Below, piece by piece: positions 8,864-61,259 of a stretch of DNA of 64,000 bases. Within the stretch, counting starts at the first letter, position 1; each line of letters begins with the position of its first letter. The DNA comes from Tipula vernalis (taxonomy: Eukaryota > Arthropoda > Insecta > Diptera > Tipulidae). Location of the stretch: contig OY282558.1 in NCBI GenBank assembly GCA_958295665.1, positions 330,061,106 through 330,125,105 of the forward strand, read 5' to 3'. The position numbers and the translations under genes are program-made. Under the pieces are notes generated by a model, which ran no database searches, was not told where the DNA came from, and was given only the letters and a program-made list of their open reading frames with translations.

Positions 8864-11115
<2,252 letters not shown>

Positions 11116-13372: not shown

Positions 13373-13404
<32 letters not shown>

Positions 13405-21170: not shown

Positions 21171-21532
21171 AAATTAAAATACCCCGATAGTTTTTAGTAT
21201 TACACACAGACAGTATTAGTAACATTAAGTTATATTTACACGAATTTTTGGAATATTCCGAAATTTTCGTGAATTTTCTAAATTTTGACAGGCTTTCCGA
21301 AATTATTCATTAATATCCAGATTTTTCGGTATTATTGAAATTGTTCAGAGATATCTCGAGAATTCACAAAATAAGAAGATTATTCCAATTTTTCTGTGAT
21401 TGTTCCGGGTTATATTCTAAATTTCTTAAGTTTTCCGACATTCTAAATTAATTTGAATTTTGTGTGAAAATGTTCTGCGATTAGCTCTGAGTTTGAGGAC
21501 TTGCAGAATTACACATATACATCTGAATCGCA
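21171..21532. other. AT-rich, repeated GAATTTTC-like words, no gene
   Basis: Short phrases built on GAATTTTC, TTTTCCGA and AAATTT recur at irregular spacing, suggesting a decayed minisatellite. No coding signal. Confidence 0.35.
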
Positions 21533-22262
21533 ATATTTTGTCATTTTTCGAGATTATGCCAAAATTTCGATATTTACGTTTTATATGGCGAGGATCTTCT
21601 TTCATTTTACATACTTATGGATAATTCGATATTTGAAAACCTTCAAGAATATTCAAGATATGTATACTTTGAAAATTTGACATTTTTGAGATTATTTTCA
21701 ATTATATACGAAATTTGTGATGCTTCATCGATATACTTATTTAGGAAACGTTATAGCACTGAGTTGCTGGATGTTTCGTTTTATTTGAGGCTATTGAAAT
21801 GAATCACGTTCTTTTTCATCTAGTCACGAAATCCGATACTTTTAAATAATTTGAGGCTCGACAGTAGGAAGAAATAAGTTTTTTATCTAAAAGGTTTACT
21901 TGCTCATAAGTATAAGAATTATTATTGGGGCCCAAGAAAAATTTTGCGGGGGGCCCGCGATTTGTAGTTACGCCACTGTTTGATCGACTAGATTTATTAC
22001 ATGAATGGGAATTTGGCAATATTAGTATAATTCGCTAATGCAACCTGTACACCTGTAAAATTGTGGTAAAATCAGTCCAGTAGCCATTACCTGGCCCATA
22101 GGCTCATCGGTTCTTAACTGGATTAAATTCTCTTACAATTTTCAGAAAAATATTAACTTCATAATTAAAAATTATAAGAATTTGTTCTTACTAAACTAAA
22201 TGTTAAAATATGGAACCCGAACCCAATATAGTTTAAATCGAATTAGCTTTCTTAGGTAAATT
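21533..22262 (+). repeat. Left arm of a ~3.3-kb inverted repeat structure
   Basis: Long blocks of this arm are found in reverse complement at 24288-24838. Examples are TCATTTTTCGAGATTATGCC at the outer end, TTTGATCGACTAGATTTATT in the middle and ATATAGTTTAAATCGA at the inner end. Similarity is imperfect, with indels. Inside it, near 21960-21980, a 'GATTTGTAGTTACGCCACTG' terminus (CAGTGGCGTAACTACAAATC in reverse) looks like a MITE/hAT-type end. Confidence 0.75.
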
Positions 22263-24287
22263 AGAAACAAATTGTGCTCACACTTAATTTAAATAACTTG
22301 CAATATTTACACAATAATTAATTCATCATTATATTGAATCGTATGTATGTTTAGTTAAGAAAGGATATGATTCATTGGAAATAGCGGAAACTGATACTGT
22401 TTTTTGACGGAAAATGACCATATTACTTGAACAAAACTATTAATAATACTTTGTATTTAATACAATAATATATTAGATTCTATTAAATTCATGCTCTATC
22501 TAAGTGATAATGGCGCTTATGCACATTATTTCATCAAACTATGCAAAGGTAAAAAAAAAAACGTGAATATATTAATTAGCATTACGAGTATGTATACGTG
22601 ATAATCTTCACGCCAAACATGCAAACAAAAACATCAATTACCTTTGCGGACTTGATTAAACTTTGGTTGGTCGTTTCGTATTTAATTTCTACAACAATTT
22701 TACAATTAAACAATAAAAATTTCACTTAAACAATAATCCCATTTGAATAAAATTATGGTCTTCTTATTATTATTATTATTTATTTGTGTACTATTTGTAT
22801 AATACAATATATTTAATGACTAAGATTTTTAAAATACTATGGTACAACGACAACACTAACATTTTTTTATTATTTTGCGGTTTTAGAAGTTTTATTGTTA
22901 CCGGAATATATAAGACATATTTACAATTTGTACTACATATACGATACTCATTCAATTTAGGCGATTGTAGGTTGTATGGCCGCAATTTGGAATGACACCA
23001 TTAAATAAAGTGCACGTGCCACATGGTGGCGTTTTAGCAACTTATTTAAAATTTTAACTTGGTAGTCGTCTGGTGAATGCAACGAACTTAAATATACATT
23101 CAATTGCATTTTAAATCAGAAGTTTATTTTTAAATTAATTACTTATTGTTATTTATTGTGTTTTCTTATTGCGTATATAAATAAAAATAATATTATTAAG
23201 AAATTTAAATTTTGTCACACCTGAAACCTTAAAAAAAAAAATCCTCAAAAAGAATAATAAAATAATATTATTGTGTGTACGGTTACGTATATTCAAAAAT
23301 GTCTAGTCAAGTTGTTTTACGAATGTATCGTAGGTGTTCCCCTGTGGCAATCTAATATTCAATACAATTTCCACATTTATGAATTATATAAATATTAAAC
23401 TAAAAAAAAATAAATTAAAATTAACCCTAAAATGTACAAAATTAAATTACTAATCTTATTTCCGAATACAAATTAATCAATAAATGGTTAATTTAATTGT
23501 CATCCCAATGTACATTATTAATCATATATTATGATTGTCAATTTTTTATAAAAGCTACAAGACAAATTTTAATAAATACTGTTGAAAAATGTTGTTTTGT
23601 GGTTAACAAAAATAAATTAACATAAAACTTTTTAAATTAAATACAATGTCAATTTGAAATTAATATGAAACATAATACATAAATGAGCCTAACTAATAGG
23701 ATCTCACAGTTTGGCATGCTAATGGAGTAATGTTGTGGTTTGAGGATTTTACAATTTTATTTTAAGTGTTTTACCATATTTATGGATTTTTCGCTATAGA
23801 CGTGAATAATATTTCTTTGGCGGCGTTTTTTTTTAAATTCATCTGAAATATACATAAATAATATAATACGTGAATAATATAAACGATACGTGAATAAACT
23901 TTGGTAGTAAAGCGGTATTATTCGGGATGATAATTAACCGTGAACTAAAAACCAAAATTAGTTAAAAGTCAGTCATAAAAATTAAATCGATTGGTTGTAG
24001 AAAAACTTCTTTACAATTTAATCAATTTTAAAGTTGTAATATTCCGAAGCTGTCAGCAAAGAAAATTGAAACATCTTGAATTTCTATCTTTTATGGTTAA
24101 CTTTGGTTTTAATCTAGTAGCGTAACCTTAATTTCAATTCAATTTCAACCGAAAATAGTATCAATTCCCGCCATTTCCCATGAATCTTAACCCTTTTTTA
24201 ATTAAACATACATACATTTACCTGCGTACCAAATTCATTCTTTGGGTAATCTTTTACAATGAAAATGTTGCGTTATACCAAATTTTA
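22263..24287. other. AT-rich core between the inverted arms
   Basis: About 2 kb with no credible protein; small frames on both strands (22786-22995) are shadows of each other. It may be the internal part of a non-autonomous foldback-type element or host sequence enclosed by two insertions. Confidence 0.4.
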
Positions 24288-24838
24288 GATAAAGACAAGC
24301 TCACTCGATTTAAACTATATTGGGTTCGGGTTTCATATTTTAACATTTACTTTAGTAAGAACAAATTCTAATAATTTTTAGTTATGAAGTTAATATTTTT
24401 CTGAAAATTATAAGAGAATTTAATCCAGTTAAGAACTGATGAGCCTATTATGACAAAATCAATCCACTCATCAGGGCATGGCTACTGGACTGATTTTACT
24501 ACAATTTTACAGTTGTACAGGTTGCATTAGCGAATTATACTAATATTGCCAAATTCCCATTCGTGTAATAAATCTAGTCGATCAAACAGTGGCCTAACTA
24601 CAAATCCCGGGCCCCGCAAAATTTTTCTTGGGCTCTCAGTACTATGACGTTTTCTAAATATATCGATGAAGCATCAAATTTCGAATATAATTGAAAAATA
24701 TCAAGAATATCGAAATAATCTCAAAAATGTCAGATTTACAAAGTAAGTATAATTCATAAGCCATGTAAAACGTAAAACATCTGGATATAAGAAATATCGA
24801 AATTTTGGCATAATCTCGAAAAATGACAAAATTTGACT
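24288..24838 (-). repeat. Right arm of the ~3.3-kb inverted repeat structure
   Basis: Reverse-complement partner of 21533-22262. It contains a CAGTGGCCTAACTACAAATC terminus near 24590, pointing outward as in the left arm. It lacks part of the left arm, so it has deletions. Confidence 0.75.
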
Positions 24839-25129: not shown

Positions 25130-25600
25130 TTCACCTGTTGTGATGAATTTTGGCATGCACGATGGATATAGTATTCTAAAATTATTTGTAGATAAAGTTC
25201 TGGAATAGGGCCAATTAGGAAGAAATTAGGTGATTTCTAAACCAAATTGTAATGTGTAATGGAATTCGAAAAATACAACATGCCGTCAGTAAAGAAACAA
25301 CCGAGTTCTTTCCTAATTTGCCTTATTCCCAAACTTCATCTAAAAATCATTTTAAAGTACCTTTTCCGTCGTACATGTCAAATTTCATCATAATCGGTTA
25401 AGAAATACGCAAGTTCCTTCCTAATTGGCCATATTTCAGAATTTCATCTAGAACTCATTTTAGAATCCCATTTCCATTGGGCATGTTGAATTTTTACATA
25501 ATTGGTAAAAAAATGGACAAATTCCTTCCTAATTGGCCATATTTTAGAACTACTTCTAAAACTCTAACTCTGCCTAAGGCTTTATTCTTGAATTTTTCCT
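25130..25600. repeat. ~107-bp repeat family, first locus (inverted arrangement)
   Basis: Units contain the phrase TTCTGGAATATGGCCAA or its complement TTGGCCATATTTCAGAA, plus CCGATTATGATGAAATTC. One plus-oriented unit (25190-25290) is followed by about three reverse-oriented units (25300-25590). The same family fills 41770-42840 and occurs once at 27750-27905. Confidence 0.65.
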
Positions 25601-27745: not shown

Positions 27746-27749
27746 AACA

Positions 27750-27905
27750 TGTAAAAATCATTTTAGAATCGCATTCCCGTTGTACGTGCGTAATATCATT
27801 ATAATCGGTTAAAATACGGCCAAGTTCCTTCCTCGCCATATTCCAGAACGTCTTCTAAATATTATTTTATAATCCTAGTTCCATCGCACGTCCATTTCCG
27901 GTTTT
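27750..27905 (-). repeat. ~107-bp repeat family, single diverged units
   Basis: AATCATTTTAGAATCGCATTCCCGTTG, split here as AATCATTTTAGAATCGCATT plus CCCGTTG, with GTTCCTTCC and TTCCAGAACGTCTTCTAAAT, are reverse-oriented family phrases. They abut the 5' side of the Jockey relic, while another array abuts its 3' side, so the LINE may have inserted into a repeat cluster. Confidence 0.5.
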
Positions 27906-31416: not shown

Positions 31417-31859
31417 TGTTACGTTTTTGCCTTGTCAATCAAGGTCCATATCACTGGATTGTTAATAAAACAAAATTAATTTAATTTATCACCAAACGAA
31501 TTTATTTATGTCACACAAAAGTTATAACAACACTATTTACTAACGATAATTCACAATAATTTCCACACAATTTTACTGTACTCTTATAAATTTTATTTCG
31601 CACTACAACATTTTTTAAATCACTTTTAATTCCTTTTTAATCTTTACACAATCGCTTGCCAAATACTAATAATCCAATTCGACTTTGTTCGCCTTTTTAT
31701 ATACACAAACCAAACTTCTAGAAAGCTCTTGACTTTTCCAGTTAGAATAGTGTAGAAACATTACGTAACAATTTTATCATGGAAAATTCCATTTTACTAC
31801 AGTTAGACATTGAGCTATTAATTTAACTTATTCTATAACTCCTAGATGCCACCGTCACA
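31417..31859 (-). mobile_element. Solo LTR, copy 1 (minus orientation)
   Basis: A 443-bp unit reads on the minus strand from TGTGACGGTGGCATCTAGGA to AAAACGTAACA, so it has TG...CA ends. A TATATAAAAAGGCGAAC promoter lies about 175 bp in, and AATAAA-type sequence follows downstream. It is flanked by ATAT on both sides (31413-31416, 31860-31863), a 4-bp duplication as made by Gypsy-type retrotransposons. No internal coding region adjoins it, so it is a solo LTR left by recombination between two LTRs. Confidence 0.85.
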
Positions 31860-32102
31860 ATATGAAAATTTTACAAATCTAAACTTTTAATCAGAAATAT
31901 GCAGCTACTCAAATAATGACATTTAGGGAAATTGGGAGTTTCAATTTTTCCAAATTTTTATGACTAAGGGATTTTTACACAAAAATTCCCTAAAATAATT
32001 GTATACATAATTTTAATAAAATATTTAGCCAATGGAACTTCATGTTGAGAAACATTGCTAATCAATCACAATGCTGTGCAGGCACGAAAAACGGAATAGT
32101 AT

Positions 32103-32559
32103 TGTGACGGTGACACCTAGTGTGTAATAGAATAAGTTAAATTAATAGCTCAATGTCTAACTGTACTAAAATGGAATTTTCCATGATAAAAATTGTTCTA
32201 AATGTGTCTACGCTATTCTAACTGGAAAAGTCATGAGCTTTCTAGAAGTTTGGTATGTGTATATAAAAAGGCGAACGAGATCGAATTGGATCAGTAGTAT
32301 TTGGAAAGCGACAGTGTGAAGATTAAAAAGGAATTAAAAAGTGATTTAAAAAGTGTTGTAGTGCGAAATAAAAATTATAAGTGTACAGTAAAATTTGAGA
32401 ATAATTTACATAAAGTAATTTTGTGAATTTTTATTAATAAACTGTGTTGTAATAATTTTTGTGTGAAATAAATAAATTCGTTGGTGATAAATTAAATTGA
32501 TTTTGTATTATTCACAATCCAGTGATACGAACCTTAATTGACAAGGTAAAAACGTAATA
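32103..32559 (+). mobile_element. Solo LTR, copy 2 (plus orientation)
   Basis: A 457-bp relative of the 31417-31859 LTR in the opposite direction. It starts TGTGACGGTGACACCTAG, contains TATATAAAAAGGCGAACG near 32260, and ends CGTAATA, where CA has become TA. It has its own 4-bp duplication GTAT (32099-32102 and 32560-32563). Different target duplications show two independent insertions, followed in each case by loss of the body. Confidence 0.85.
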
Positions 32560-35648: not shown

Positions 35649-36740
35649 TGGAGCGTTACACGATACAAAAACGTGTTTTCATTATTGAACAATATCTCGT
35701 TTGGCGGCCACAGTTCGAAAATTTCATACAAAATATGGTCGGAATAGTGTTTTAACTTCGTCAACTGTGAAGAGATTAATTGAAAAATTCAGGGAGACTG
35801 GATCAGTTGGAGACGCTAACAAGACTGGTCGTCCAAAAACAATCCGTTCAAATATCAATATCGAAGCAGTGCATGACAGTGTTGGTGAAAATCCCAGAAT
35901 ATCAATTCGGCGTCTGGACAACAATTGCAAATTTCAAGAAGCTCTCTACAGCATATACTCACAAAAGATCTGTCTCCATCCTTACAAAATTCAATTAACA
36001 CAACAACTGAAGCCTAATGACCTAAGCACATTTTAATCTTGATGGCTTTGTTAATCGCCAAAATTGCCGTGTTTGGGGTTCAGAGAACCCACATGTGATT
36101 ATCGAAAAACAAATGCATCCACAACGTGTCACTGTTTGTTGCGAATTTTAGACTGGATCCATCATTGGACCATACAAGCAGTGACTGTTTCTGGTGCTCG
36201 ATATTGCAACATGATAACACAATTCTTTGCGTCGAAATAGGATGATATTGATGTGACCAATATGTGGTTTCAATAAGACTGCATGAGACATTTCCTGGTC
36301 GTGTACTCTCTCGTTTCGATGATCAGATTTGGCGCCCTAGATCGTGTGATTTATTTAACACCATTAGATTTCTTTTTATGGGGTGATTTGAAGTCAAAGG
36401 TCTATTACTAAAGATACATGTTAAACCGAAAGTGGTCTGACTGAAAACGTCCGAGATAAATTCAACACGTACACGGCGGCTTGAGTGAAAGCAAAGATTA
36501 TTAACAAGAAGATCTTGTTAATAATCTTTGCTTTCAGTCAAGCCGCCGTGCGTACATGTTGAATTTATCTCGAACGATTTCAGTCAGATCACTTTCGGTT
36601 TAACATGTATCTTTAGTATATGTCAATAAGCCTACAACCACCCGTGCATTACAGAAGGAAATTAAACGCTGCATCAACGAAATTCAGCCACATTTATGCA
36701 GAATGGTTATAAACCCACCGAAACAAGTTATGTGACGAGA
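35649..36740 (+). pseudogene. Mariner-superfamily (DD41D-like) transposase relic
   Basis: From the ATG at 35649 the pieces are MERYTIQKRVFIIEQYL, SSTVKRLIEKFRETGSVGD, TGRPKTIRSN, PRISIRRL (two helix-turn-helix units), HPYKIQLTQQLKPND and, after a frameshift, LDGFVNRQNCRVWGSENP and QMHPQRVTV. TNMWFQ marks the second Asp region, where the Asp-bearing block has mutated. LTPLDFFLWGDLKSKVY holds the third Asp. After the 36406-36618 insert comes the C-terminus (ALQKEIKRCINEIQPHLCRM). Many stops and shifts; dead. It differs from the 6438 element by family details, but the PLDFFLWG end is of the same general type. Confidence 0.83.
36406..36618. mobile_element. 213-bp palindromic MITE
   Basis: Two arms of about 105 bp are near-perfect reverse complements, meeting at AAGATCTT near 36512-36519. 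The outer ends read TACTAAAGATACATGTTAAA on each strand. TAT occurs on both sides (36403-36405 and 36619-36621), and deleting the insert plus one TAT joins the transposase codons for KSKVY and VNKPTT without a gap. It is therefore a real insertion in the mariner relic. Arms differ at only a few positions. Confidence 0.85.
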
Positions 36741-41769: not shown

Positions 41770-42840
41770 AAATGTGGGATTCTAAACTGATTTTTAGATG
41801 AGATTCTGGAATATGGCCAAGTGGAATGGAGCTTGGTTATGTCTCAACCGATTATGATGAAATTCGAGTTGTACGATGGAAATGGGATCCTAAAATAATT
41901 TTTAGATAAAGTTCAGGAATATGGCCAAGTGGGATCTAACTTGGCTATTTCTTAACCGATTTTGGTGAAATTCGACACGTGCGACTTAAATGGGCTTCTA
42001 TAATGATATTTAGATGAAGTTCTGGAATATGGCCTATTAGGAAGGAACTCCGTTAGTTCTCAACCGATTATGATGAAATACGACTTGTGCGACGGAAATG
42101 GGATCTTCAAATGATTTTTAGATGAAGTTCTGGCATATGGACAAGTAGGATGGAACTTGGCTGTTTTTTGAACGATTTTGATGAAATTCGATACGTGCGA
42201 TAGAAATGGGATTCTAAAATGATATTTAGAAGATGCTCTGGAATATGGCCAAGTAGGTTGGAACTTGGCTATTTCTTAACCGATTATGATGAAATTCTGG
42301 AATATTTTGTATTAGGATCTAACTTGGCTATTTTCTAACCGATTATGATGCAATTCAACACGTTAACAACACAAAGTTAATAACCGATTATGATGAAATC
42401 CAGCATGTACGATGGAAATTTGATGCTAAAACATTTTTTAGAAGAAATTCTGGAATGCGGTTTATTCGAAAGGGAGTCGATAAACCCAATTAGAAAGGAA
42501 TTTGGCCACATCTTAATCGATTATGATGAAATTCAGCATATAAGATTATAAAATAATTTGTTGATATCCTTTAAGGATTTCTTCTCAAAATCATTATAAA
42601 CTCCCGTTTTTATCGTATTTGATCAAATCCCAGAACTTAATCTAAAATTCATTTTAGAATCTAATTTCCATCGTTCCTGCTGAATTTCATCAAAATCGGT
42701 TAAGGCCAAGCTCCTTACTAATTGGTCATACTGCAGAAGTTCATCTAAAACTCTTTTTACAATCCCATTTCCTTAGTACACGCTGAATTTCAAATAAACA
42801 ATTAAAAAGTGGTCAAATTCCTTCCGAATTAGCCGATCAA
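41770..42840. repeat. ~107-bp tandem repeat array, second locus, with inversion
   Basis: From 41770 to about 42560 some seven diverged units run in the plus direction, each with GGGATTCTAAAATGATTTTT, AGATGAAGTTCTGGAATATG, GCCAAGTAGGATGGAACTTG and CCGATTATGATGAAATTC. From about 42600 to 42840 two or more units run in reverse. Units vary by indels. This is the largest cluster of a family also seen at 25.1-25.6 and 27.8 kb. No protein is encoded. Confidence 0.8.
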
Positions 42841-47884: not shown

Positions 47885-48463
47885 GATAAATGATAAATGA
47901 AGTCTTGCAAAATCGTAATGCGAAATTTGAAGAACCAATCAATTTAAATATGGATGGTAAATTGATCACAAACCAAAGGGAAGTTGCAAATAATTTCAAC
48001 AAATATTTCAATGATATTGGTGTGTTTTCCTGTAAGACTAGCCCTAATATTTTAGTGAATCGTAATGTAAATAGCATGCTGCGCAATTTTGAAGTTACGG
48101 ACTACGAAGAAGTTAATTCAATCATATCTTGCTTAGATTCTTCCAGCTCAATGGGTTGGGACTCCATATCGGTAAAACTTATTAAGAAATTTAATTTTAA
48201 AATAACACCAATTTTATGTACTGGTATAAATGAAACAATCTTAACGAACAAGCTGCCCAATGAGTTGAAAATTGCTCGTATTACTCCGATATTTAAATCA
48301 GGGTCTAAGCAAGACATTAATAATTACAGACCGATATCCGTTCTTCCAACATTTTCAAAAATTTTTGAAAAGATTATCCATAAAAGGTTACAACTTTATT
48401 TAGACAACAATCAATTAATTAGTTCTAATCAATTTGGCTTTCAAAGAAATAGCAGTACGCTTT
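47885..48463 (+). pseudogene. CR1/Jockey-group LINE C, first half of RT
   Basis: The open frame from about 47890 reads MINEVLQNRNAKFEEPINLN, LITNQREVANNFNKYFNDIG, SSSSMGWDSISVKLIKKFNF, KLPNELKIARITPIFKSGSK, NYRPISVLPTFSKIFEKIIH and SNQFGFQRNSSTL, the linker and first RT blocks of a LINE. It is cut at the codon for the Leu after SST by the 11.6-kb insertion. The partner half is at 60092-61259 in the same phase. The 5' end is truncated at about 47885; a weak direct repeat TTAAGAA (47860 region and after the 3' A-run) may be the target duplication. Confidence 0.9.
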
Positions 48464-48702
48464 ATGAATGTGAATTTCTTCCTAAACTTTCCTAAAATCA
48501 CAAAAACAAGAAATTGTGAGAATGTATGAGTGAAACTACGCATTAACGAATAAATTATACATTACTCAATAAGTAAATGATATTCAACCTTTTGTATTGA
48601 TACGTCTAAATATTATGTGAAATATTTTTTGAATATTCCATTATTAATTTCTGTATGATAATTTATGTTGATAAAAATACTAATGTTCAATACCATACGT
48701 CG
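48464..48702 (+). repeat. Left terminus and sub-terminal region of the TIR element
   Basis: Holds the left inverted terminus (48464-48497) and about 200 bp of AT-rich DNA up to the first diverged satellite monomer. CCTAAACTTTCCTAAAAT here recurs in reverse complement at 59833-59852 near the other end. Confidence 0.7.
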
Positions 48703-51700
48703 AATTTCCGAACGTTTTCCGATACTTAGAAACACCGGCCCAAAATCCTAAGTGTATTTTTGAGTACCTAACTGTGAATGTAAACTAACAGAAAACATCA
48801 TCGTTTGAAAAGTTGTAGAGACTAAGGGTGTTTAGTATAACAAAATCATATTACGGCTTCCGTATATGTCTTACGTAAATTTTCCCAGCATTTTCCGCAC
48901 CTTAGAAAACCGGCCAAAAATACTAAGTATATTTTTGAGAAACTGTGAATGTAAACTAACAGAAAAACATCACCGTTTGAAAAGTTGTAGAGACTAAGGG
49001 TGTTTAGTATAACAAAATCATATTACGGCTTCCGTATATGTCTTACGTAAATTTCCCCAGCATTTTCCGCACCTTAGAAAAACCGGCCAAAAATACTAAG
49101 TATATTTTTGAGTAACTGTGAGTGTAAACTAACAGAAAAACATCATCGTTTGAAAAATTGTAGAGACTAAGGGTGTTTAGTATAACAAAATCATATTACG
49201 GCTTCCGTATATGTCTTACGTAAATTTCCCAAGCATTTTCTGCAACTTAGAAAAACCGGCCAAAAATATTAAGTATATTTTTGAGTAACTGTGAATGTAA
49301 ACTAACAGAAAAACATCATCGTTTGAAAAGTTGTAGAGACTAAGGGTGTTTAGTATAACAAAATCATATTACGGCTTCCGTATATGTCCTATGTAAATTT
49401 CCCAAGCATTTTCCGCAACTTAGAAAAACCGGCCAAATATACTTAGTATATATTTTTGAGTAACTGTGAATGTAAACTAACAGAAAAACATCATCATTTG
49501 AAAAGTTGTAGAGACTAAGGGTGTTTAGTATAACAAAATCATATTACGGCTTCCGTATATGTCTTACGTAAATTTCCCAAGCATTTTCCGCAACTTAGAA
49601 AAACCGGCCAAAAATACTAAGTATATTTTTGAGTAACTGTGAATGTAAACTAACAGAAAAACATCATCGTTTGAAAAGTTGTAGAGACTAAGGGTGTTTA
49701 GTATAACAAAATCATATTACGGCTTCCGTATATGTCTTACGTAAATTTCCCAAGCATTTTCCGCAACTTAGAAAAACCGGCCAAAAATACTAAGTATATT
49801 TTTGAGTAACTGTGAATGTAAACTAACAGAAAAACATCATCGTTTGAAAAGTTGTAGAGACTAAGGGTGTTTAGTATAACAAAATCATATTACGGTTTCC
49901 GTATATGTGTTACGTAAATTTCCCAAGCATTTTCCGCACCTTAGAAAAACCGGCCAAAAATACTACGTATATTTTTGAGTAACTGTGAATGTAAACTAAC
50001 AGAAAAACATCATCGTTTGAAAAGTTGTAGAGACTAAGGGTGTTTAGTATAACAAAATCATATTACGGCTTCCGTATATGTCTTACGTAAATTTCCCCAG
50101 CATTTTCCGCACCTTAGAAAAACCGGCCAAAAATACTAAGTATATTTTTGAGTAACTGTGAATGTAAACTAACAGAAAAACGACATCGTTTGAAAAGTTG
50201 TAGAGACTAAGGGTGTTTAGTATAACAAAATCATATTACGGTTTCCGTATATGTCTTACGTAAATTTCCCAAGCATTTTCCGCAACTTAGAAAAACCGGC
50301 CAAAAATACTAAGTATATTTTTGAGTAACTGTGAATGTAAACTAACAGAAAAACATCATCGTTTGAAAAGTTGTAGAGACTAAGGGTGTTTAGTATAACA
50401 AAATCATATTACGGTTTCCGTATATGTGTTACGTAAATTTCCCAAGCATTTTCCGCACCTTAGAAAAACCGGCCAAAAATACTACGTATATTTTTGAGTA
50501 ACTGTGAATGTAAACTAACAGAAAAACATCATCGTTTGAAAAGTTGTAGAGACTAAGGGTGTTTAGTATAACAAAATCATATTACGGCTTCCGTATATGT
50601 CTTACGTAAATTTCCCAAGCATTTTCCGCACCTTAGAAAAACCGGCCAAAAATACTAAGTATATTTTTGAGTAACAGTGAATGTAAACTAACAGAAAAAC
50701 ATCATCGTTTGAAAAGTTGTAGAGACTAAGGGTGTTTAGTATAACAAAATCATATTACGGTTTCCGTATATGTCTTACGTAAATTTCCCAAGCATTTTCC
50801 GCAACTTAGAAAAACCGGCCAAAAATACTAAGTATATTTTTGAGTAACTGTGAATGTAAACTAACAGAAAAACATCATCGTTTGAAAAGTTGTAGAGACT
50901 AAGGGTGTTTAGTATAACAAAATCATATTACGGTTTCCGTATATGTGTTACGTAAATTTCCCAAGCATTTTCCGCACCTTAGAAAAACCGGCCAAAAATA
51001 CTACGTATATTTTTGAGTAACTGTGAATGTAAACTAACAGAAAAACATCATCGTTTGAAAAGTTGTAGAGACTAAGGGTGTTTAGTATAACAAAATCATA
51101 TTACGGCTTCCGTATATGTCTTACGTAAATTTCCCAAGCATTTTCCGCACCTTAGAAAAACCGGCCAAAAATACTAAGTATATTTTTGAGTAACAGTGAA
51201 TGTAAACTAACAGAAAAACATCATCGTTTGAAAAGTTGTAGAGACTAAGGGTGTTTAGTATAACAAAATCATATTACGGTTTCCGTATATGTCTTACGTA
51301 AATTTCCCAAGCATTTTCCGCACCTTAGAAAAACCGGCCAAAAATACTAAGTATATTTTTGAGTAACTGTGAATGTAAACTAACAGAAAAACGACATCGT
51401 TTGAAAAGTTGTAGAGACTAAGGGTGTTTAGTATAACAAAATCTTATTACGGTTTCCGTATATGTCTTACGTAAATTTCCCAAGCATTTTCCGCAACTTA
51501 GAAAAACCGGCCAAAAATACTAAGTATATTTTTGAGTAACTGTGAATGTAAACTAACAGAAAAACATCATCGTTTGAAAAGTTGTAGAGACTAAGGGTGT
51601 TTAGTATAACAAAATCATATTACGGCTTCCGTATATGTCTTACGTAAATTTCCCAAGCATTTTCCGCACCTTAGAAAAACCGGCCAAAAATACTAAGTAT

Positions 51701-54700
51701 ATTTTTGAGTAACAGTGAATGTAAACTAACAGAAAAACATCATCGTTTGAAAAGTTGTAGAGACTAAGGGTGTTTAGTATAACAAAATCATATTACGGTT
51801 TCCGTATATGTCTTACGTAAATTTCCCAAGCATTTTCCGCACCTTAGAAAAACCGGCCAAAAATACTAAGTATATTTTTGAGTAACTGTGAATGTAAACT
51901 AACAGAAAAACGACATCGTTTGAAAAGTTGTAGAGACTAAGGGTGTTTAGTATAACAAAATCATATTACGGTTTCCGTATATGTCTTACGTAAATTTCCC
52001 AAGCATTTTCCGCAACTTAGAAAAACCGGCCAAAAATACTAAGTATATTTTTGAGTAACTGTGAATGTAAACTAACAGAAAAACATCATCGTTTGAAAAG
52101 TTGTAGAGACTAAGGGTGTTTAGTATAACAAAATCATATTACGGCTTCCGTATATGTCCTATGTAAATTTCCCAAGCATTTTCCGCAACTTAGAAAAACC
52201 GGCCAAATATACTTAGTATATATTTTTGAGTAACTGTGAATGTAAACTAACAGAAAAACATCATCATTTGAAAAGTTGTAGAGACTAAGGGTGTTTAGTA
52301 TAACAAAATCATATTACGGCTTCCGTATATGTCTTACGTAAATTTCCCAAGCATTTTCCGCAACTTAGAAAAACCGGCCAAAAATACTAAGTATATTTTT
52401 GAGTAACTGTGAATGTAAACTAACAGAAAAACATCATCGTTTGAAAAGTTGTAGAGACTAAGGGTGTTTAGTATAACAAAATCATATTACGGTTTCCGTA
52501 TATGTCTTACGTAAATTTCCCAAGCATTTTCCGCACCTTAGAAAAACCGGCCAAAAATACTAAGTATATTTTTGAGTAACTGTGAATGTAAACTAACAGA
52601 AAAACGACATCGTTTGAAAAGTTGTAGAGACTAAGGGTGTTTAGTATAACAAAATCATATTACGGTTTCCGTATATGTCTTACGTAAATTTCCCAAGCAT
52701 TTTCCGCAACTTAGAAAAACCGGCCAAAAATACTAAGTATATTTTTGAGTAACTGTGAATGTAAACTAACAGAAAAACATCATCGTTTGAAAAGTTGTAG
52801 AGACTAAGGGTGTTTAGTATAACAAAATCATATTACGGCTTCCGTATATGTCTTACGTAAATTTCCCCAGCATTTTCCGCACCTTAGAAAAACCGGCCAA
52901 AAATACTAAGTATATTTTTGAGTAACTGTGAATGTAAACTAACAGAAAAACGACATCGTTTGAAAAGTTGTAGAGACTAAGGGTGTTTAGTATAACAAAA
53001 TCATATTACGGTTTCCGTATATGTCTTACGTAAATTTCCCAAGCATTTTCCGCAACTTAGAAAAACCGGCCAAAAATACTAAGTATATTTTTGAGTAACT
53101 GTGAATGTAAACTAACAGAAAAACATCATCGTTTGAAAAGTTGTAGAGACTAAGGGTGTTTAGTATAACAAAATCATATTACGGTTTCCGTATATGTCTT
53201 ACGTAAATTTCCCAAGCATTTTCCGCACCTTAGAAAAACCGGCCAAAAATACTAAGTATATTTTTGAGTAACTGTGAATGTAAACTAACAGAAAAACGAC
53301 ATCGTTTGAAAAGTTGTAGAGACTAAGGGTGTTTAGTATAACAAAATCATATTACGGTTTCCGTATATGTCTTACGTAAATTTCCCAAGCATTTTCCGCA
53401 ACTTAGAAAAACCGGCCAAAAATACTAAGTATATTTTTGAGTAACTGTGAATGTAAACTAACAGAAAAACATCATCGTTTGAAAAGTTGTAGAGACTAAG
53501 GGTGTTTAGTATAACAAAATCATATTACGGTTTCCGTATATGTCTTACGTAAATTTCCCAAGCATTTTCCGCACCTTAGAAAAACCGGCCAAAAATACTA
53601 AGTATATTTTTGAGTAACTGTGAATGTAAACTAACAGAAAAACGACATCGTTTGAAAAGTTGTAGAGACTAAGGGTGTTTAGTATAACAAAATCATATTA
53701 CGGTTTCCGTATATGTCTTACGTAAATTTCCCAAGCATTTTCCGCAACTTAGAAAAACCGGCCAAAAATACTAAGTATATTTTTGAGTAACTGTGAATGT
53801 AAACTAACAGAAAAACATCATCGTTTGAAAAGTTGTAGAGACTAAGGGTGTTTAGTATAACAAAATCATATTACGGTTTCCGTATATGTCTTACGTAAAT
53901 TTCCCAAGCATTTTCCGCAACTTAGAAAAACCGGCCAAAAATACTAAGTATATTTTTGAGTAACTGTGAATGTAAACTAACAGAAAAACATCATCGTTTG
54001 AAAAGTTGTAGAGACTAAGGGTGTTTAGTATAACAAAATCATATTACGGCTTCCGTATATGTCTTACGTAAATTTCCCCAGCATTTTCCGCACCTTAGAA
54101 AAACCGGCCAAAAATACTAAGTATATTTTTGAGTAACTGTGAATGTAAACTAACAGAAAAACGACATCGTTTGAAAAGTTGTAGAGACTAAGGGTGTTTA
54201 GTATAACAAAATCATATTACGGTTTCCGTATATGTCTTACGTAAATTTCCCAAGCATTTTCCGCAACTTAGAAAAACCGGCCAAAAATACTAAGTATATT
54301 TTTGAGTAACTGTGAATGTAAACTAACAGAAAAACATCATCGTTTGAAAAGTTGTAGAGACTAAGGGTGTTTAGTATAACAAAATCATATTACGGTTTCC
54401 GTATATGTCTTACGTAAATTTCCCAAGCATTTTCCGCACCTTAGAAAAACCGGCCAAAAATACTAAGTATATTTTTGAGTAACTGTGAATGTAAACTAAC
54501 AGAAAAACGACATCGTTTGAAAAGTTGTAGAGACTAAGGGTGTTTAGTATAACAAAATCATATTACGGTTTCCGTATATGTCTTACGTAAATTTCCCAAG
54601 CATTTTCCGCAACTTAGAAAAACCGGCCAAAAATACTAAGTATATTTTTGAGTAACTGTGAATGTAAACTAACAGAAAAACATCATCGTTTGAAAAGTTG

Positions 54701-57700
54701 TAGAGACTAAGGGTGTTTAGTATAACAAAATCATATTACGGTTTCCGTATATGTCTTACGTAAATTTCCCAAGCATTTTCCGCACCTTAGAAAAACCGGC
54801 CAAAAATACTAAGTATATTTTTGAGTAACTGTGAATGTAAACTAACAGAAAAACGACATCGTTTGAAAAGTTGTAGAGACTAAGGGTGTTTAGTATAACA
54901 AAATCATATTACGGTTTCCGTATATGTCTTACGTAAATTTCCCAAGCATTTTCCGCAACTTAGAAAAACCGGCCAAAAATACTAAGTATATTTTTGAGTA
55001 ACTGTGAATGTAAACTAACAGAAAAACATCATCGTTTGAAAAGTTGTAGAGACTAAGGGTGTTTAGTATAACAAAATCATATTACGGTTTCCGTATATGT
55101 CTTACGTAAATTTCCCAAGCATTTTCCGCACCTTAGAAAAACCGGCCAAAAATACTAAGTATATTTTTGAGTAACTGTGAATGTAAACTAACAGAAAAAC
55201 GACATCGTTTGAAAAGTTGTAGAGACTAAGGGTGTTTAGTATAACAAAATCATATTACGGTTTCCGTATATGTCTTACGTAAATTTCCCAAGCATTTTCC
55301 GCAACTTAGAAAAACCGGCCAAAAATACTAAGTATATTTTTGAGTAACAGTGAATGTAAACTAACAGAAAAACATCATCGTTTGAAAAGTTGTAGAGACT
55401 AAGGGTGTTTAGTATAACAAAATCATATTACGGTTTCCGTATATGTCTTACGTAAATTTCCCAAGCATTTTCCGCACCTTAGAAAAACCGGCCAAAAATA
55501 CTAAGTATATTTTTGAGTAACTGTGAATGTAAACTAACAGAAAAACGACATCGTTTGAAAAGTTGTAGAGACTAAGGGTGTTTAGTATAACAAAATCTTA
55601 TTACGGTTTCCGTATATGTCTTACGTAAATTTCCCAAGCATTTTCCGCAACTTAGAAAAACCGGCCAAAAATACTAAGTATATTTTTGAGTAACTGTGAA
55701 TGTAAACTAACAGAAAAACGACATCGTTTGAAAAGTTGTAGAGACTAAGGGTGTTTAGTATAACAAAATCATATTACGGTTTCCGTATATGTCTTACGTA
55801 AATTTCCCAAGCATTTTCCGCACCTTAGAAAAACCGGCCAAAAATACTAAGTATATTTTTGAGTAACTGTGAATGTAAACTAACAGAAAAACGACATCGT
55901 TTGAAAAGTTGTAGAGACTAAGGGTGTTTAGTATAACAAAATCATATTACGGTTTCCGTATATGTCTTACGTAAATTTCCCAAGCATTTTCCGCAACTTA
56001 GAAAAACCGGCCAAAAATACTAAGTATATTTTTGAGTAACTGTGAATGTAAACTAACAGAAAAACATCATCGTTTGAAAAGTTGTAGAGACTAAGGGTGT
56101 TTAGTATAACAAAATCATATTACGGCTTCCGTATATGTCTTACGTAAATTTCCCCAGCATTTTCCGCACCTTAGAAAAACCGGCCAAAAATACTAAGTAT
56201 ATTTTTGAGTAACTGTGAATGTAAACTAACAGAAAAACGACATCGTTTGAAAAGTTGTAGAGACTAAGGGTGTTTAGTATAACAAAATCATATTACGGTT
56301 TCCGTATATGTCTTACGTAAATTTCCCAAGCATTTTCCGCAACTTAGAAAAACCGGCCAAAAATACTAAGTATATTTTTGAGTAACTGTGAATGTAAACT
56401 AACAGAAAAACATCATCGTTTGAAAAGTTGTAGAGACTAAGGGTGTTTAGTATAACAAAATCATATTACGGTTTCCGTATATGTCTTACGTAAATTTCCC
56501 AAGCATTTTCCGCACCTTAGAAAAACCGGCCAAAAATACTAAGTATATTTTTGAGTAACTGTGAATGTAAACTAACAGAAAAACGACATCGTTTGAAAAG
56601 TTGTAGAGACTAAGGGTGTTTAGTATAACAAAATCATATTACGGTTTCCGTATATGTCTTACGTAAATTTCCCAAGCATTTTCCGCAACTTAGAAAAACC
56701 GGCCAAAAATACTAAGTATATTTTTGAGTAACTGTGAATGTAAACTAACAGAAAAACATCATCGTTTGAAAAGTTGTAGAGACTAAGGGTGTTTAGTATA
56801 ACAAAATCATATTACGGCTTCCGTATATGTCTTACGTAAATTTCCCCAGCATTTTCCGCACCTTAGAAAAACCGGCCAAAAATACTAAGTATATTTTTGA
56901 GTAACAGTGAATGTAAACTAACAGAAAAACATCATCGTTTGAAAAGTTGTAGAGACTAAGGGTGTTTAGTATAACAAAATCATATTACGGTTTCAGTATA
57001 TGTCTTACGTAAATTTCCCAAGCATTTTCCGCAACTTAGAAAAACCGGCCAAAAATACTAAGTATATTTTTGAGTAACTGTGAATGTAAACTAACAGAAA
57101 AACATCATCGTTTGAAAAGTTGTAGAGACTAAGGGTGTTTAGTATAACAAAATCATATTACGGCTTCCGTATATGTCTTACGTAAATTTCCCCAGCATTT
57201 TCCGCACCTTAGAAAAACCGGCCAAAAATACTAAGTATATTTTTGAGTAACAGTGAATGTAAACTAACAGAAAAACATCATCGTTTGAAAAGTTGTAGAG
57301 ACTAAGGGTGTTTAGTATAACAAAATCATATTACGGTTTCCGTATATGTCTTACGTAAATTTCCCAAGCATTTTCCGCACCTTAGAAAAACCGGCCAAAA
57401 ATACTACGTATATTTTTGAGTAACTGTGAATGTAAACTAACAGAAAAACATCATCGTTTGAAAAGTTGTAGAGACTAAGGGTGTTTAGTATAACAAAATC
57501 ATATTACGGCTTCCGTATATGTCTTACGTAAATTTCCCCAGCATTTTCCGCACCTTAGAAAAACCGGCCAAAAATACTAAGTATATTTTTGAGTAACTGT
57601 GAATGTAAACTAACAGAAAAACATCATCGTTTGAAAAGTTGTAGAGACTAAGGGTGTTTAGTATAACAAAATCATATTACGGTTTCCGTATATGTCTTAC

Positions 57701-57945
57701 GTAAATTTCCCAAGCATTTTCCGCAACTTAGAAAAACCGGCCAAAAATACTAAGTATATTTTTGAGTAACTGTGAATGTAAACTAACAGAAAAACATCAT
57801 CGTTTGAAAAGTTGTAGATACTAAGGGGGTTTAGTATAACAAAATCATATTACGGCTTCCGTATATGTCTTACGTAAATTTCCCCAGCATTTTCCGCAAC
57901 TTAGAAAAACCGGCCAAGTATATTTTTGAGTATATTTAGAAACTT
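48703..57945 (+). repeat. Satellite array, 173-bp monomer, ~53 copies
   Basis: Head-to-tail repeats with period 173 bp: the anchor GTAGAGACTAAGGGTG recurs from 48815 to 57814 (last copy with a base change), 53 times by spacing. Diagnostic words are CTGTGAATGTAAACTAACAG, TTTAGTATAACAAAATCATA, TTCCGTATATGTCTTACGTA and CTTAGAAAAACCGGCC. Monomers are very similar inside the array; the first and last are diverged or truncated, as expected when unequal exchange homogenises the middle. Variants (CATCATCG or CGACATCG, CGGCTTCC or CGGTTTCC, CCGCACC or CCGCAAC) alternate, giving ~346-bp dimers in much of the right half. No frames. Confidence 0.97.
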
Positions 57946-58189
57946 TACTTTTGTGTTTGAAGAGTAAAACATTGGTATAACTCTTGGCCTTGGGCTAAAA
58001 TTACTGGGAGGGGGGAATGATATTTCTACTTTTTCCAGTAGATATGTTATGAGAGATTGGCCTCTTTATTTTTCTGATTTACCAAATCGAAAATATTGGG
58101 ATTACCATGAACAATTAATATATTTGTCTATAAAAAAGCCGATAAAATCAAATGATTTACAGACAGACAAATTAAATTCTTAAGAAAAA
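57946..58189. other. Unique spacer after the satellite
   Basis: About 240 bp with a short G-run (GGGAGGGGGG near 58008); no coding signal recognised. Confidence 0.4.
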
Positions 58190-58885
58190 TATGTCCGCCA
58201 GGTGGCCACCTAGCATTGATATAAACGCCGGCTCATTTTTGAGCATTTTTTATGGCGTGTCGGTAGTATTTCGATCGATTTTCGGTCCTGCTGAAATTAC
58301 CGGCCTTCAATACCAAGTTCGTCCACTTCTTGTGCCAAAAAATTCGCGTAGCATTACGTTGTCTCTCTAGCGATTATCATTGACAGTAACAGCCTTCCCT
58401 TCGTTAAATACAAAAAAGTATTATTAATATGATTCGTTTCGAGCAAATCTCGCACCAGAATTACTTTTTTGTCGAATTGAGCTTTCTCGTGAATAATTCG
58501 AGAATTTTCGGATACCTAATAAAGACTGTTTTGCTTATTTTGCACTGCAATTGAACAATAATGCGGTTCATCGCTCATGATAATTTTCAACCAAAAGTTT
58601 GGTTCGATTTAATTGGCGAGAGTAATAGGCATTAAATTGTGTTAATATAATTTTGTTCAAAATTCGACGCAAAGGGGTGGGATTACATACCAATTGCGGT
58701 GCACGTTTTCTTGTTGATGTTCCTGCGTTTTCATTGACATCATCACACACAATATCAATATTCTCGCTTTATAAACGTCTTGTTCTCTTTTAGGCGTCTT
58801 TAGACAACGACATTTTGATCGAAATTCTCTTTGAGAGCAATAAACTGAAAATTTATTTTCATAAAACAGTTTAAACATTTCTGAT
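58190..58885 (-). pseudogene. Mariner-superfamily transposase relic inside the satellite element
   Basis: The minus strand holds a heavily decayed transposase: FKLFYENKFSVY near the start; NENAGTSTRKRAPQL and NPTPLRRILNKI, which match the second helix-turn-helix of mariner-like enzymes (usual 'ENPxxSxRRxxxxLGIS...LxRIL' pattern). MSDEPHYCSIAVQNKQN, at about 58570, corresponds to the first catalytic Asp block, and VIHEKA-like, YANFLAQEVDELGIEG and FQQD blocks follow to about 58330. The third motif is lost. Several frameshifts and stops. Like the 35649 relic it belongs to the group with a long Asp-Asp spacing, but the spacing cannot be measured here. Confidence 0.65.
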
Positions 58886-58962
58886 CGCTGGCCGGTTTTT
58901 CTAAGTTACGGAAAATGCTTGATAATAATATGATTCTGTTATACTAGACACCCTTATACCCT
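58886..58962 (-). repeat. Inverted satellite scrap
   Basis: GGCCGGTTTTTCTAAGTTAC, then GGAAAATGCTT and, after a deletion of about 35 bp, ATATGATTCTGTTATACTAG and ACACCCTTAT, are the reverse complement of parts of the 173-bp monomer. It lies 950 bp beyond the array, in opposite orientation. Confidence 0.85.
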
Positions 58963-59039
58963 AGACAGACTGTGGTTTAATAAATCCGATTTAGCTAAAC
59001 TAGTTTAAGTTTCTATGCAAAAATAGTCCTCTCTGGAGG

Positions 59040-59815
59040 GATTTTTTATTTTATTTATTTATTTTATGTAATTACATTCTAGTCTCCTGAACTAATGAGC
59101 AATTTGTTTCTGACTTAATTTACTAACTTAAATTAAGCTATGGCTTCTTCCCATTAGCGTTCCATAGTGTTTAGTAAATTGAAGTAAACCACATCTTTGT
59201 AGTGGATTTTACATCAGCACAATGCTGTTTAAACTGACAATCACACAAGCTCAAAAGGTTAGGTTCTTTAAGGTTCACATGTTGGCGGAGCCTTTCTTCA
59301 TGTCTCTGTGCTTTTTCCTGAATTTTCTTTATGATGAGGTTCATTTTAAGGTCCCTAGAAGGGAATATCAGTACGAAACCTTTCCCCAAAAGATGGTAAT
59401 GGAAACAAGTAATCGGTGGTACCGAGGATATCTCTGTTACACTATAAAGATGAGTATCCTGTATTGCTACAGGTCCACATAGAAATGGATTTGATCCTTA
59501 ATGCCTGAGTGGGTGTATCCTGAGTGCAGGGTGGAAAGGGTGGAAGTTCTCTAAATTTTCATCAGCAACTTTTGGTTAGCCTTACTATTTAAGGCTGGCC
59601 ACCAAACAACAATCCCATATGAAAGTATGGGCCTTATCATTGAAGCATAGAGCCAGTATAAGATTTGCGGTTCAAGACCACAACGTTTTCCAATAGCAAT
59701 TTTAAAGGTGTATAGCGTATAATAGCTTTCTTTACCCTTTCTAAAATATTAGGCTTCAAACTAAATTTGCTGTCCAAAACAACACTAGGTATTTCGCTTT
59801 ATTTTTATTTATTAT
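59040..59815 (-). pseudogene. Chimeric LINE fragment: Jockey 3' end joined to RNase H LINE piece
   Basis: From the 3' side: a tail repeat at 59043-59150 (same as 2744-2850), a Jockey-type C-terminus at 59370-59170 (DLKMNLIIKKIQEKAQRHEE, LRQHVN), then at 59390-59815 a segment matching 2090-2590 of the RNase H-type LINE (for example GTAGCAATACAGGATACTCA on the minus strand and TTTACCCTTTCTAAAATATT on plus). All lie in one orientation, but they belong to two families as judged by the 1.6-5 kb locus. So it is a rearranged or template-switched retro-copy. No intact frame. Confidence 0.7.
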
Positions 59816-60091
59816 TCAAATGATGATGTTCTCATTTTAGGAAAGTTTAGGTTTGGGCTCATTTTAGGCCATATTCATTTTATAAACTATGTAATTCAAA
59901 TTGCGTTTTCTTCTTTATATAATGCTAATTATCGGTTAATTCGAATTAAGTATATTATAATCACGAACACATGCAAAGCTATTAATCTTTAGGAAAAACT
60001 TCACACATTTGCGCAAAGACGTGAAGTTTTTCCTAAACGATCCTATTTTTTTTTTTTTTTTAGGATAGTTTAGGATAAACTTCACGCGAAT
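59816..60091 (+). repeat. Right terminus of the TIR element, hairpin-rich
   Basis: ATTTTAGGAAAGTTTAGG (59834 region) copies the left end's sub-terminal word in inverse. Then AGGAAAAACTTCAC/GTGAAGTTTTTCCT form a 14-bp stem with a 15-base spacer at about 59993-60035, and CCTAAACGATCCTA/TAGGATAGTTTAGG flank a T-run (60045-60063). The last 30 bases are the terminal inverted repeat ending GCGAAT at 60091. Repeated terminal words may be transposase-binding sites; inference. Confidence 0.65.
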
Positions 60092-61259
60092 TACGCTTTC
60101 TGCTATTTTAAACTTATTAGAAAATATTTACAATAACCTTGAAGCTAGGAAATTTACGTCTTGCATTTTCATTGACTTAGCCAAAGCTTTTGACTGCATA
60201 GATCATAACATTTTATTAAAGAAATTAAGTAGCCTTGGCGTGATTGATAGCGCTCTTTCGCTTCTTGAAGATTACTTACTTAATCGCAAACATTATGTTC
60301 AAATGGGAAAATATAAGTCCGAAGAACTATTTCTAAAGTGTGGAGTACCTCAAGGCTCTATCTTAGGTCCATTATTATTTAATATCTACATCAATGATGT
60401 TTTCTTGCTCAATTTATCTGGCAAACTTCAACTTTTTGCGGATGATGCGGTAATTACATATGATGCTTTGAGTACAGAAGACCTACAATTACAGATGGAA
60501 ACCGATTTAAAAATCTTAAATAGCTTTTTTCTCGCTAATAAGCTTCGCCTTAATAAATCTAAAACTAAATTCATAATCTTCTCTGTAAAGAAAAAACTGT
60601 TTGACGATTTTAGGGAAATTTCTCTGGATTTGGAAAAAATCTCTAGAGTAGATAATATTTGTTACCTAGGACTGAATCTTTGCTATAACTTAAACTGGAC
60701 GATTCACATAAACTCCATAAAGCAAAAGCTGGCGCCGTACGTAGCTGTCTTTCGACGTATTGGAAAATATATTACAAACCAGCAAGTTGCAATGAACTGC
60801 TACTATTCATTTGTTCACTCCCGTTTACTTTATTTGATTCAAATTTGGGGATCAGCAGGTAGTACTAAAGTAAAAGAATTACAAATATACCAAAACCAAG
60901 CTTTAAAGGCAATCAAGAATATTGACATGAGAACACCTACCATTTTCCTTTATTCCAATCGACTGTTACCAATATCGCAGATGGTAGAATATGAATTTAT
61001 CCTATTGGTTTATAAACTTAAGTATAATATGATTAAAAGTAATAATGTTTTAATTACTAATTATGAGATAACCAAACGCGCTAACAGATCTGCAGCTCAT
61101 TTTCGTTTACCACAATATTTTTATAAAATATCTCAAAGTAGTTTTTTCTATCGGGGATTAAAATTGTTTAATGACCTTGAGGATAATTGGAAGTCTATGC
61201 CATTAGGTATCTTTAAAACAAATGTGAAAAATTTATTGCTTTCTGAGTTTGTTCAGTAA
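60092..61259 (+). pseudogene. CR1/Jockey-group LINE C, second half of RT and C-terminus
   Basis: The frame continues that of 47885-48463: AILNLLENIYNNLEARKF, CIFIDLAKAFDCIDHNILLK (motif A), VPQGSILGPLLFNIYIND, LQLFADDAVITYDA (FADD active site), LANKLRLNKSKTKFIIFSVK, ICYLGLNLCYNLNWTIHINS, AGSTKVKELQIYQNQALKAI and the C-terminus AAHFRLPQYFYKISQSSFFY to a TAA at 61257-61259. This half is open throughout, so the LINE is young or was intact before being split. It would copy RNA to DNA at the target site. The endonuclease half is absent because of 5' truncation, so the copy could never move itself. Confidence 0.93.

What the first reader, a model, noticed from the sequence alone, without database searches (positions are those of the whole stretch)
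48464..60091. A satellite array carried inside a TIR element with an 8-bp target duplication
Seen directly: the 11.6-kb block is flanked by TACGCTTT on both sides, has 34-bp inverted ends matching at 26 positions, and interrupts a LINE whose coding frame is continuous without it. Inside are ~53 copies of a 173-bp satellite and no own transposase. Known precedents exist for satellites born from tandem repeats inside non-autonomous DNA transposons. If the whole block moved as a unit, the satellite is mobile; if the array grew after insertion, this is a satellite birthplace. Either would be of interest. I do not know of this family being described.
Basis: partly seen in the sequence, partly recalled or inferred. 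Interest (0 to 1): 0.88.

Follow-up and report, generated by a model that had tools for sequence, protein, structure and literature searches.

The report
Jumping satellite DNA in a transposon
In an insect genome (likely a fly), a 173-base satellite repeat sits inside a DNA transposon found at many sites, nearly all checked copies being flanked by their own 8-base target duplication and holding from about one to over a hundred repeats, so the satellite likely spreads as the transposon's cargo and is likely reshaped after each landing.

Summary
The block at 48464-60091 (11,628 bp) has a perfect 8-bp duplication, 34-bp inverted ends matching at 26 positions and 53 monomers of 173 bp, and splits a LINE frame that is open once the block is left out; uninterrupted LINE copies exist elsewhere. 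It is one member of a dispersed family: 245 left and 206 right termini genome-wide. All 21 copies read carry the satellite at the same internal place, from about 1.3 to at least 113 monomers. Of 24 copies with both ends, 22 have perfect 8-bp duplications of different sequence; a 23rd is explained by nesting. Elements of 17-30 kb are included, some with unread interiors. Three siblings (backbones 0.2-0.4% apart) hold arrays of about 53, 85 and 100 monomers with about 3% internal diversity, shared private variants and scrambled order. So a diverse multi-monomer array was likely already in the unit that jumped, then was rearranged and lengthened. Some copies hold inverted arrays in the right arm (foldback form). 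An unrelated satellite, also of 173-bp period, occurs in a similar inverted arrangement. Closest precedent: Tetris of Drosophila virilis. No transposase was tied to these ends.

The parts
48456..48463 (.). left copy of the 8-bp target duplication TACGCTTT
48464..48497 (+). left terminal inverted repeat (34 bp, 26 positions matching the right end)
   Evidence: 245 genome sites at up to 3 mismatches over its first 26 bases, control 1
48464..48702 (+). left subterminal segment; 89-99% identical in the 20 other copies read, 95% or more in 14 of them
48703..57917 (+). satellite array, 53.2 monomers of 173 bp; the first monomer is diverged and stands in the same place in the other copies read
57918..59034 (+). 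non-coding inner segment, found in 15 of the 20 other copies read (and in part in L012); in most it begins at the same monomer phase
58887..58956 (-). degenerate inverted satellite fragment, probably the relic of a right-arm (foldback) monomer; whole inverted monomers stand in the right arm of some other copies
59035..59809 (.). segment with reverse-transcriptase-like remains and pieces similar to window 2138-3574, present wholly or partly in most other copies read
   Evidence: the RT likeness was read by eye
59810..60091 (+). right subterminal segment, with several inverted TIR-like motifs at 59988-60086
60058..60091 (-). right terminal inverted repeat
   Evidence: 206 genome sites at up to 3 mismatches over its outer 29 bases, control 0
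60092..60099 (.). right copy of the 8-bp target duplication TACGCTTT
47890..48463 (+). 5' part of the interrupted LINE (RVT_1)
60100..61256 (+). 3' part of the interrupted LINE (RVT_1)

Best explanation
The block is one copy of a dispersed, apparently non-autonomous, foldback-type TIR DNA transposon with 8-bp target duplications, whose left arm (and in some copies the right arm) holds a 173-bp satellite array that likely travels with it and is likely rearranged and lengthened after landing. Shown directly: the termini, the duplications, the fixed place of the satellite in the element, the spread of array sizes, the multi-monomer block repeats inside arrays, and variants private to sibling copies. 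Inferred: a transposase supplied in trans cuts and pastes the whole unit, array included; after landing, unequal exchange or similar copying of blocks of several monomers changes array length and order; the next jump disperses the new version. The transposase and its superfamily were not found.
For: Genome-wide 245 left and 206 right termini against 1 and 0 in controls. From 110 left and 100 right places listed, 53 left ends pair with a right end in the correct orientation within 50 kb, 2 in the wrong one. All 21 copies read have the satellite next to the left segment. Perfect 8-bp duplications in 16 of 17 copies and in 6 of the 7 longest pairs, among them elements of 11.6, 11.7, 13.8, 17.1, 19.7, 21.3, 23.2, 25.0, 26.9 and 29.8 kb. 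The exception (L024) is a nested copy: its right flank AACCCGTT equals the left flank of an outer copy whose left end lies 689 bp away. Siblings L013, L014 and L015: backbones 0.2-0.4% apart over about 2,430 bp, within-array diversity 2.9-3.5%, median nearest monomer in a sibling 0.6-1.2% against 2.3-2.9% to the window's array, 3-5 distinct monomer types shared pairwise against 1-2 with the window copy. A 30-mer common to the three, chosen as absent from the other 18 sequences in hand, occurs at 91 sites genome-wide, all in four element copies (37, 25, 24 and 5). A 30-mer chosen as shared by the window copy, L009 and L010 occurs at 6 sites, two in each of them and nowhere else. Exact internal repeats of 0.9-2.1 kb inside the three sibling arrays, and spacings such as 12 or 19-20 monomers in long arrays, show block duplication.
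Against: No autonomous partner was identified. MULE, hAT and P-like transposase domains are all abundant, but only 150 each of 1,401, 3,396 and 2,537 candidates were scored, and I compared the lists with the termini by eye only. Array order is not kept between siblings: the longest exact block shared among L013, L014 and L015 is 374 bp, so transposition of an unchanged long array is not shown. Order tests gave 3 low results over about 156 comparisons, no more than chance allows. By mean distance L014 is hardly closer to its siblings (3.3-3.6%) than to the window's array (3.4%), and many variants of L013 and L015 also occur in L012 (61% and 55%); L012 and L028 share 3 monomer types too, so sharing is not exclusive to siblings. 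One 29.6-kb pair (C2:199.7 Mb) has no duplication. The 31.6-kb pair is long because of a nested second carrier, and the middles of the 23.2-, 25.0- and 26.9-kb copies and 6.9 kb of the C80 copy were not read, so nested insertions may lengthen those too. 56 of 95 exact left termini on C1 and C2 lack the satellite by the exact pattern.
Confidence: 0.86

Rival explanations
1. The element jumps with one or two monomers only, and every long array grew in place afterwards (pure satellite birthplace).
For: Compact copies with about 1.3-1.8 direct monomers exist (L016, L018, L020, L021, L022). Most monomer haplotypes are array-specific and arrays contain block duplications.
Against: Siblings 0.2-0.4% apart share 3-5 distinct monomer types and private variants, and their within-array diversity is about ten times the backbone divergence. 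The window copy, L009 and L010 each hold two monomers with the same private variant. All this assumes that satellite and backbone mutate at like rates and that copies do not exchange monomers.
Confidence: 0.12
2. A free-standing satellite array was captured by, or inserted into, the element at many sites (for example by reintegrated circular DNA).
For: Circular-DNA reintegration is an established idea for array growth (discussed in PMC4079207, section read).
Against: The array starts with the same diverged first monomer and, in most copies, ends at the same phase. Compact copies already hold monomers in both arms. Every satellite site that was listed lay in or next to an element copy: 100 listed of 2,311, 6 of 6 and 91 of 91.
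Confidence: 0.04
3. The dispersed copies are segmental duplications or assembly artefacts rather than transpositions.
For: Arrays are hard to assemble; read support was not available here.
Against: The 22 copies with perfect duplications have 22 different octamers, and uninterrupted LINE copies exist.
Confidence: 0.03

Closest known systems
Tetris foldback transposon and its TIR-220 repeats, Drosophila virilis (PMC4079207; abstract, the section Characterization of Tetris and part 1 of the Discussion read)
   Same: Apparently non-autonomous TIR element of foldback form; tandem repeats of about 220 bp inside the arms, variable in number; target duplications of 8-10 bp; no transposase found; arrays of up to 66 copies reported.
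   Different: Only three structurally complete copies were described there, and the authors suggest that larger arrays may have disrupted transposition. Here 22 of 24 copies keep perfect duplications, with arrays of 53 to more than 100 monomers among them. The 173-bp repeat and the ends were not compared with Tetris sequence.
Galileo (P superfamily), Drosophila mojavensis (PMC3573991; passages read)
   Same: Tandem repeats inside long TIRs that expand and contract independently in each arm; chimeric copies flanked by non-matching sequences instead of duplications, like C2:199.7 Mb here.
   Different: Two or three repeats of about 210 bp; 7-bp duplications; transposase-coding copies are known.
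Helentron-type HINE elements of the Pacific oyster (PMC7492417; passages read)
   Same: Mobile elements that disperse satellite-like arrays with monomers mostly of 140-180 bp.
   Different: Rolling-circle elements (recalled); the longest array there is 29.3 monomers.
Interspersed tandem repeats 172TR and pvB370 of the Drosophila virilis group (PMC10462019; passages read)
   Same: Medium-length arrays of 0.5-10 kb at about 2,000 dispersed loci; a new 1.5-kb 172TR insertion was seen between strains.
   Different: Their way of moving is stated there as unknown; here the carrier, its ends and its duplications are visible.

Membership tests
TIR (class II, cut-and-paste) DNA transposon | terminal inverted repeats at both ends, same ends in many copies | tested here: met
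TIR (class II, cut-and-paste) DNA transposon | constant-length target site duplication, different at each site | tested here: met
   8 bp in 22 of 24 copies, 22 different octamers
TIR (class II, cut-and-paste) DNA transposon | DDE transposase in an autonomous relative with the same ends | tested here: inconclusive
   none identified; incomplete lists
Foldback-type element | long inverted arms containing tandem repeats | tested here: met
   full-length inverted monomers in the right arm of C1:155.6 Mb and C80; compact copies L016 and L018 with inverted monomers next to direct ones; in the window copy only a relic fragment
Tetris family | sequence identity of ends or repeats to Tetris | not tested
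   no Tetris sequence was compared
hAT, Mutator-like or P superfamily | related transposase plus superfamily-typical ends | tested here: inconclusive
   8-bp duplication allows several superfamilies (recalled); all three transposase types occur in the genome but none was tied to these ends
Satellite DNA | long head-to-tail arrays of similar monomers | tested here: met
Satellite DNA | megabase blocks in heterochromatin | tested here: inconclusive
   2,311 pattern sites genome-wide, too few for such a block of close relatives; unassembled sequence not seen

The most novel reading that the evidence does not exclude
In this genome the satellite has no home of its own: it lives as cargo of foldback transposons, which carry arrays of several kilobases, possibly up to about 30 kb, to new sites where block duplication remakes them; and two unrelated carriers have converged on exactly the same 173-bp unit, pointing to a shared, perhaps nucleosome-length, constraint on what can be amplified inside such elements.
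Probability: 0.4. Interest if true: 0.86.

Novelty: new variant of a known kind. Interest (0 to 1): 0.76.

Why it matters
How satellite-like arrays spread to many dispersed sites, and whether a transposon can still move once a long array has grown inside it, are open questions: the first is stated as unknown for the D. virilis group (PMC10462019, passages), and for the second the Tetris authors suggest that large arrays disrupt movement (PMC4079207, section read). Here one genome holds a graded series from about one to more than 100 monomers in elements with intact ends and duplications, with siblings young enough to separate what moved from what grew. That makes the order of transposition, growth and homogenisation directly testable.

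Tried and rejected
A transposase-binding-like motif shared by the TIRs and the satellite monomer (as proposed for Tetris and Galileo) was tested by local alignment against 500 Markov shuffles: lowest p 0.108 over 8 comparisons, rejected.

Similarity between the two 173-bp satellites: alignment scores 17 and 20 against maxima of 24 and 25 in 50 shuffles each, so no likeness was found.

The near-equal lengths of the window copy (11,628 bp) and a C4 copy (11,632 bp) suggested an unchanged twin; the window's private 30-mer is absent from C4, so this was dropped as a coincidence.

Superfamily from transposase searches: MULE, hAT and P-like families are each too abundant to assign. Rfam found nothing in the window at the gathering threshold.

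Order of monomers kept between copies: not shown beyond chance (an earlier form, stopped with an error).

Literature: searches (PMC open-licence library only) listed no title or abstract start that describes this family or satellite; this does not prove it is undescribed. A review (PMC12628747) was also read in passages.
Full report
What is in the window. The block 48464-60091 (11,628 bp) is flanked by TACGCTTT on both sides, the only two places of that octamer in the window. Its 34-bp ends match at 26 positions. It holds 53.2 monomers of 173 bp at 97% matches, a left segment of 239 bp, and a right part of 2.2 kb. No ORF of 120 aa or more lies wholly inside it. The right part contains a degenerate, inverted satellite fragment at 58887-58956. 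Leaving the block and one octamer out gives an open LINE frame of 577 aa. The two LINE halves match the reverse transcriptase family. A 126-aa peptide across the junction finds uninterrupted LINE copies; the top 8 of 150 scored matches are 100% identical over its full length.

The genome. The window lies in an unnamed assembly of 1.27 Gb in 340 contigs, three of them 371-464 Mb. The named relatives seen for a Dok-like gene exon in the window are dipteran, the top one from the sand fly Lutzomyia (120 of 481 hits listed, many unnamed), so the host is likely a fly.

A family of elements. The outer 26 bases of the left end occur 245 times and the outer 29 of the right end 206 times with up to 3 mismatches, against 1 and 0 for reversed controls. 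Of 110 left places (100 listed, 10) and 100 right places listed, 53 left ends have a correctly oriented right end within 50 kb, 2 a wrongly oriented one. The satellite stands at the fixed offset from an exact left end in 69 copies, 0 in controls; 53 of the 69 pair with a listed right end, with lengths from 883 to 31,556 bp, median 5,994. Of 95 exact left ends on C1 and C2, 39 show this exact pattern and 56 do not. The pattern caught all 21 of the copies it was tuned on, but those were chosen among the closest matches, so the 56 may be older, deleted or satellite-free relatives.

Copies read. I read the window copy and 20 of the 39 other scored places. All 21 have the satellite next to the left segment, from about 1.3 monomers to at least 113 (L012, 19.7 kb of array read without reaching its end). 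With both ends in hand for 17, 16 have perfect 8-bp duplications, all different. L024 is the exception. Another left end lies 689 bp away; L024 sits inside the array of that outer copy, and the outer copy's left flank AACCCGTT equals the right flank of L024. I infer a nested insertion followed by loss of the inner right end. Right ends were not found for L021, L022 and L028; L012 was completed later.

The longest elements. Of the 7 longest pairs, 6 have perfect duplications (21.3, 23.2, 25.0, 26.9, 29.8 and 31.6 kb); the 29.6-kb pair has none, though 3 of 3 interior samples are satellite. The 21.3-kb copy is satellite along most of its length by the sites listed and its right end. The middles of the 23.2-, 25.0- and 26.9-kb copies, and 6.9 kb of the 29.8-kb C80 copy, were not read. 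The 31.6-kb copy is different: 3 of 3 interior samples are an unrelated tandem repeat with a period also of 173 bp. That repeat runs in + and then - orientation both there and at C1:381.24-381.25 Mb, with 934 sites genome-wide, and its carrier appears inserted in the right segment of our element. So a second satellite with an inverted, foldback-like arrangement exists, with no sequence likeness found.

Foldback form. In the 3.0 kb read at its right end, the C1:155.6 Mb copy has ten full-length and two partial inverted monomers; the C80 copy has four full-length and two partial ones; both begin with direct monomers on the left. Compact copies L016 and L018 have 1.3-1.8 direct monomers followed at once by about 1.3-1.5 inverted ones. 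I infer that the ancestral element was a foldback with monomers in both arms, and that arrays expanded repeatedly, mostly in the left arm.

Did arrays move, or grow in place? Three copies on C3 bear on this most. L013, L014 and L015 have backbones 0.2-0.4% apart, different duplications, and arrays of about 53, 85 and 100 monomers (array lengths 9.2, 14.7 and 17.3 kb). If each array had grown after insertion from one or two monomers at the backbone mutation rate, its monomers should differ by a few tenths of a percent. They differ by 2.9-3.5% within arrays and 3.3-3.6% between the siblings. The nearest monomer in a sibling is 0.6-1.2% away (medians), against 2.3-2.9% for the window's array; 56-84% of common variants are shared between siblings, against 8-30% with the window copy. 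Against this, the mean distance of L014 to the window's array is only 3.4%, and L013 and L015 share 61% and 55% of their variants with L012. Pairwise the siblings share 3-5 distinct monomer types, against 1-2 with the window copy; L012 and L028 also share 3. A 30-mer shared by the three, chosen as absent from the other 18 sequences in hand, occurs at 91 places in the genome, all in four element copies, the fourth on C1. A 30-mer shared by the window copy, L009 and L010 occurs at 6 places, two in each of them; their backbones are 0.9-1.1% apart. So a diverse multi-monomer array was likely present in the unit that moved; this assumes that satellite and backbone mutate at like rates and that copies do not trade monomers.

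What changed afterwards. Sibling arrays do not keep their order: the longest exact block shared among L013, L014 and L015 is 374 bp, while repeats inside each array reach 906, 2,099 and 1,766 bp. Exact repeats of 300 bp or more recur at spacings such as 12 (L012) or about 20 (L014, L015) monomers. This fits repeated block duplication by unequal exchange or a like process, which I infer. A formal order test gave low values for 3 of about 156 comparisons, no more than chance allows; I do not rely on it. I therefore do not claim that a 53- or 100-monomer array was moved unchanged; the lower bound on what moved is 3-5 distinct monomers.

Where the satellite lives. The genome holds 2,311 sites of a 45-base monomer pattern with up to 3 mismatches, 0 in controls; 505 of them lie in the 21 sequences in hand. 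The 100 sites listed all fall in three places that carry a terminus of this element (for C1:4.3 Mb only the right end is known). I saw no free-standing array, but 2,211 sites were not listed and unassembled sequence is out of sight.

Known kinds. Tetris of D. virilis is the closest: an apparently non-autonomous foldback element with about 220-bp repeats in its arms, 8-10-bp duplications, three structurally complete copies and arrays of up to 66 repeats; its authors suggest that larger arrays may disrupt movement (PMC4079207, sections read). Galileo shows two or three arm repeats and chimeric copies without matching duplications (PMC3573991, passages). Oyster HINE elements carry arrays of up to 29.3 monomers (PMC7492417, passages). 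The interspersed 172TR arrays of the D. virilis group move by an unknown mechanism (PMC10462019, passages). The present family works like Tetris at larger scale and with more well-preserved copies. Superfamily membership is open. I file it as a new variant of a known kind.

Noticed in passing
G000 C1:420.314-420.337 Mb and C1:381.244-381.254 Mb (L036, L049-L051): A second satellite, without sequence likeness but also 173 bp in period, in + then - arrays, 934 sites genome-wide; its carrier appears to sit inside a copy of the present element.
   Followed up: partly
window 25291-25564 and 41775-42297: A 108-bp tandem repeat present in two arrays in opposite orientation about 16 kb apart (75-80% alike), with further pieces at 27748-27891 and 42624-42792.
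   Followed up: no
window 21531-24835: Inverted arms (among them 45 bp at 98% and 344 bp at 89%) about 2-3 kb apart, looking like another foldback-type element.
   Followed up: no
window 31419-32557 and 36406-36618: A 460-bp inverted repeat and a 213-bp palindrome.
   Followed up: no
window 5530-6437 and 8864-10023: Two AT dinucleotide runs of about 0.9 and 1.2 kb.
   Followed up: no
G000 C3:279.6, 281.0 and 292.0 Mb (L013-L015): Three nearly identical young copies lie within 12.3 Mb of one chromosome, which may point to local hopping.
   Followed up: partly
window 2138-3574: Pieces similar (82-93%) to the right part of the element, next to reverse-transcriptase remains read by eye.
   Followed up: no
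window 12740-14584, minus strand: Exon of a Dok-like docking protein with PH and PTB domains, an ordinary host gene whose named relatives place the genome in Diptera.
   Followed up: yes
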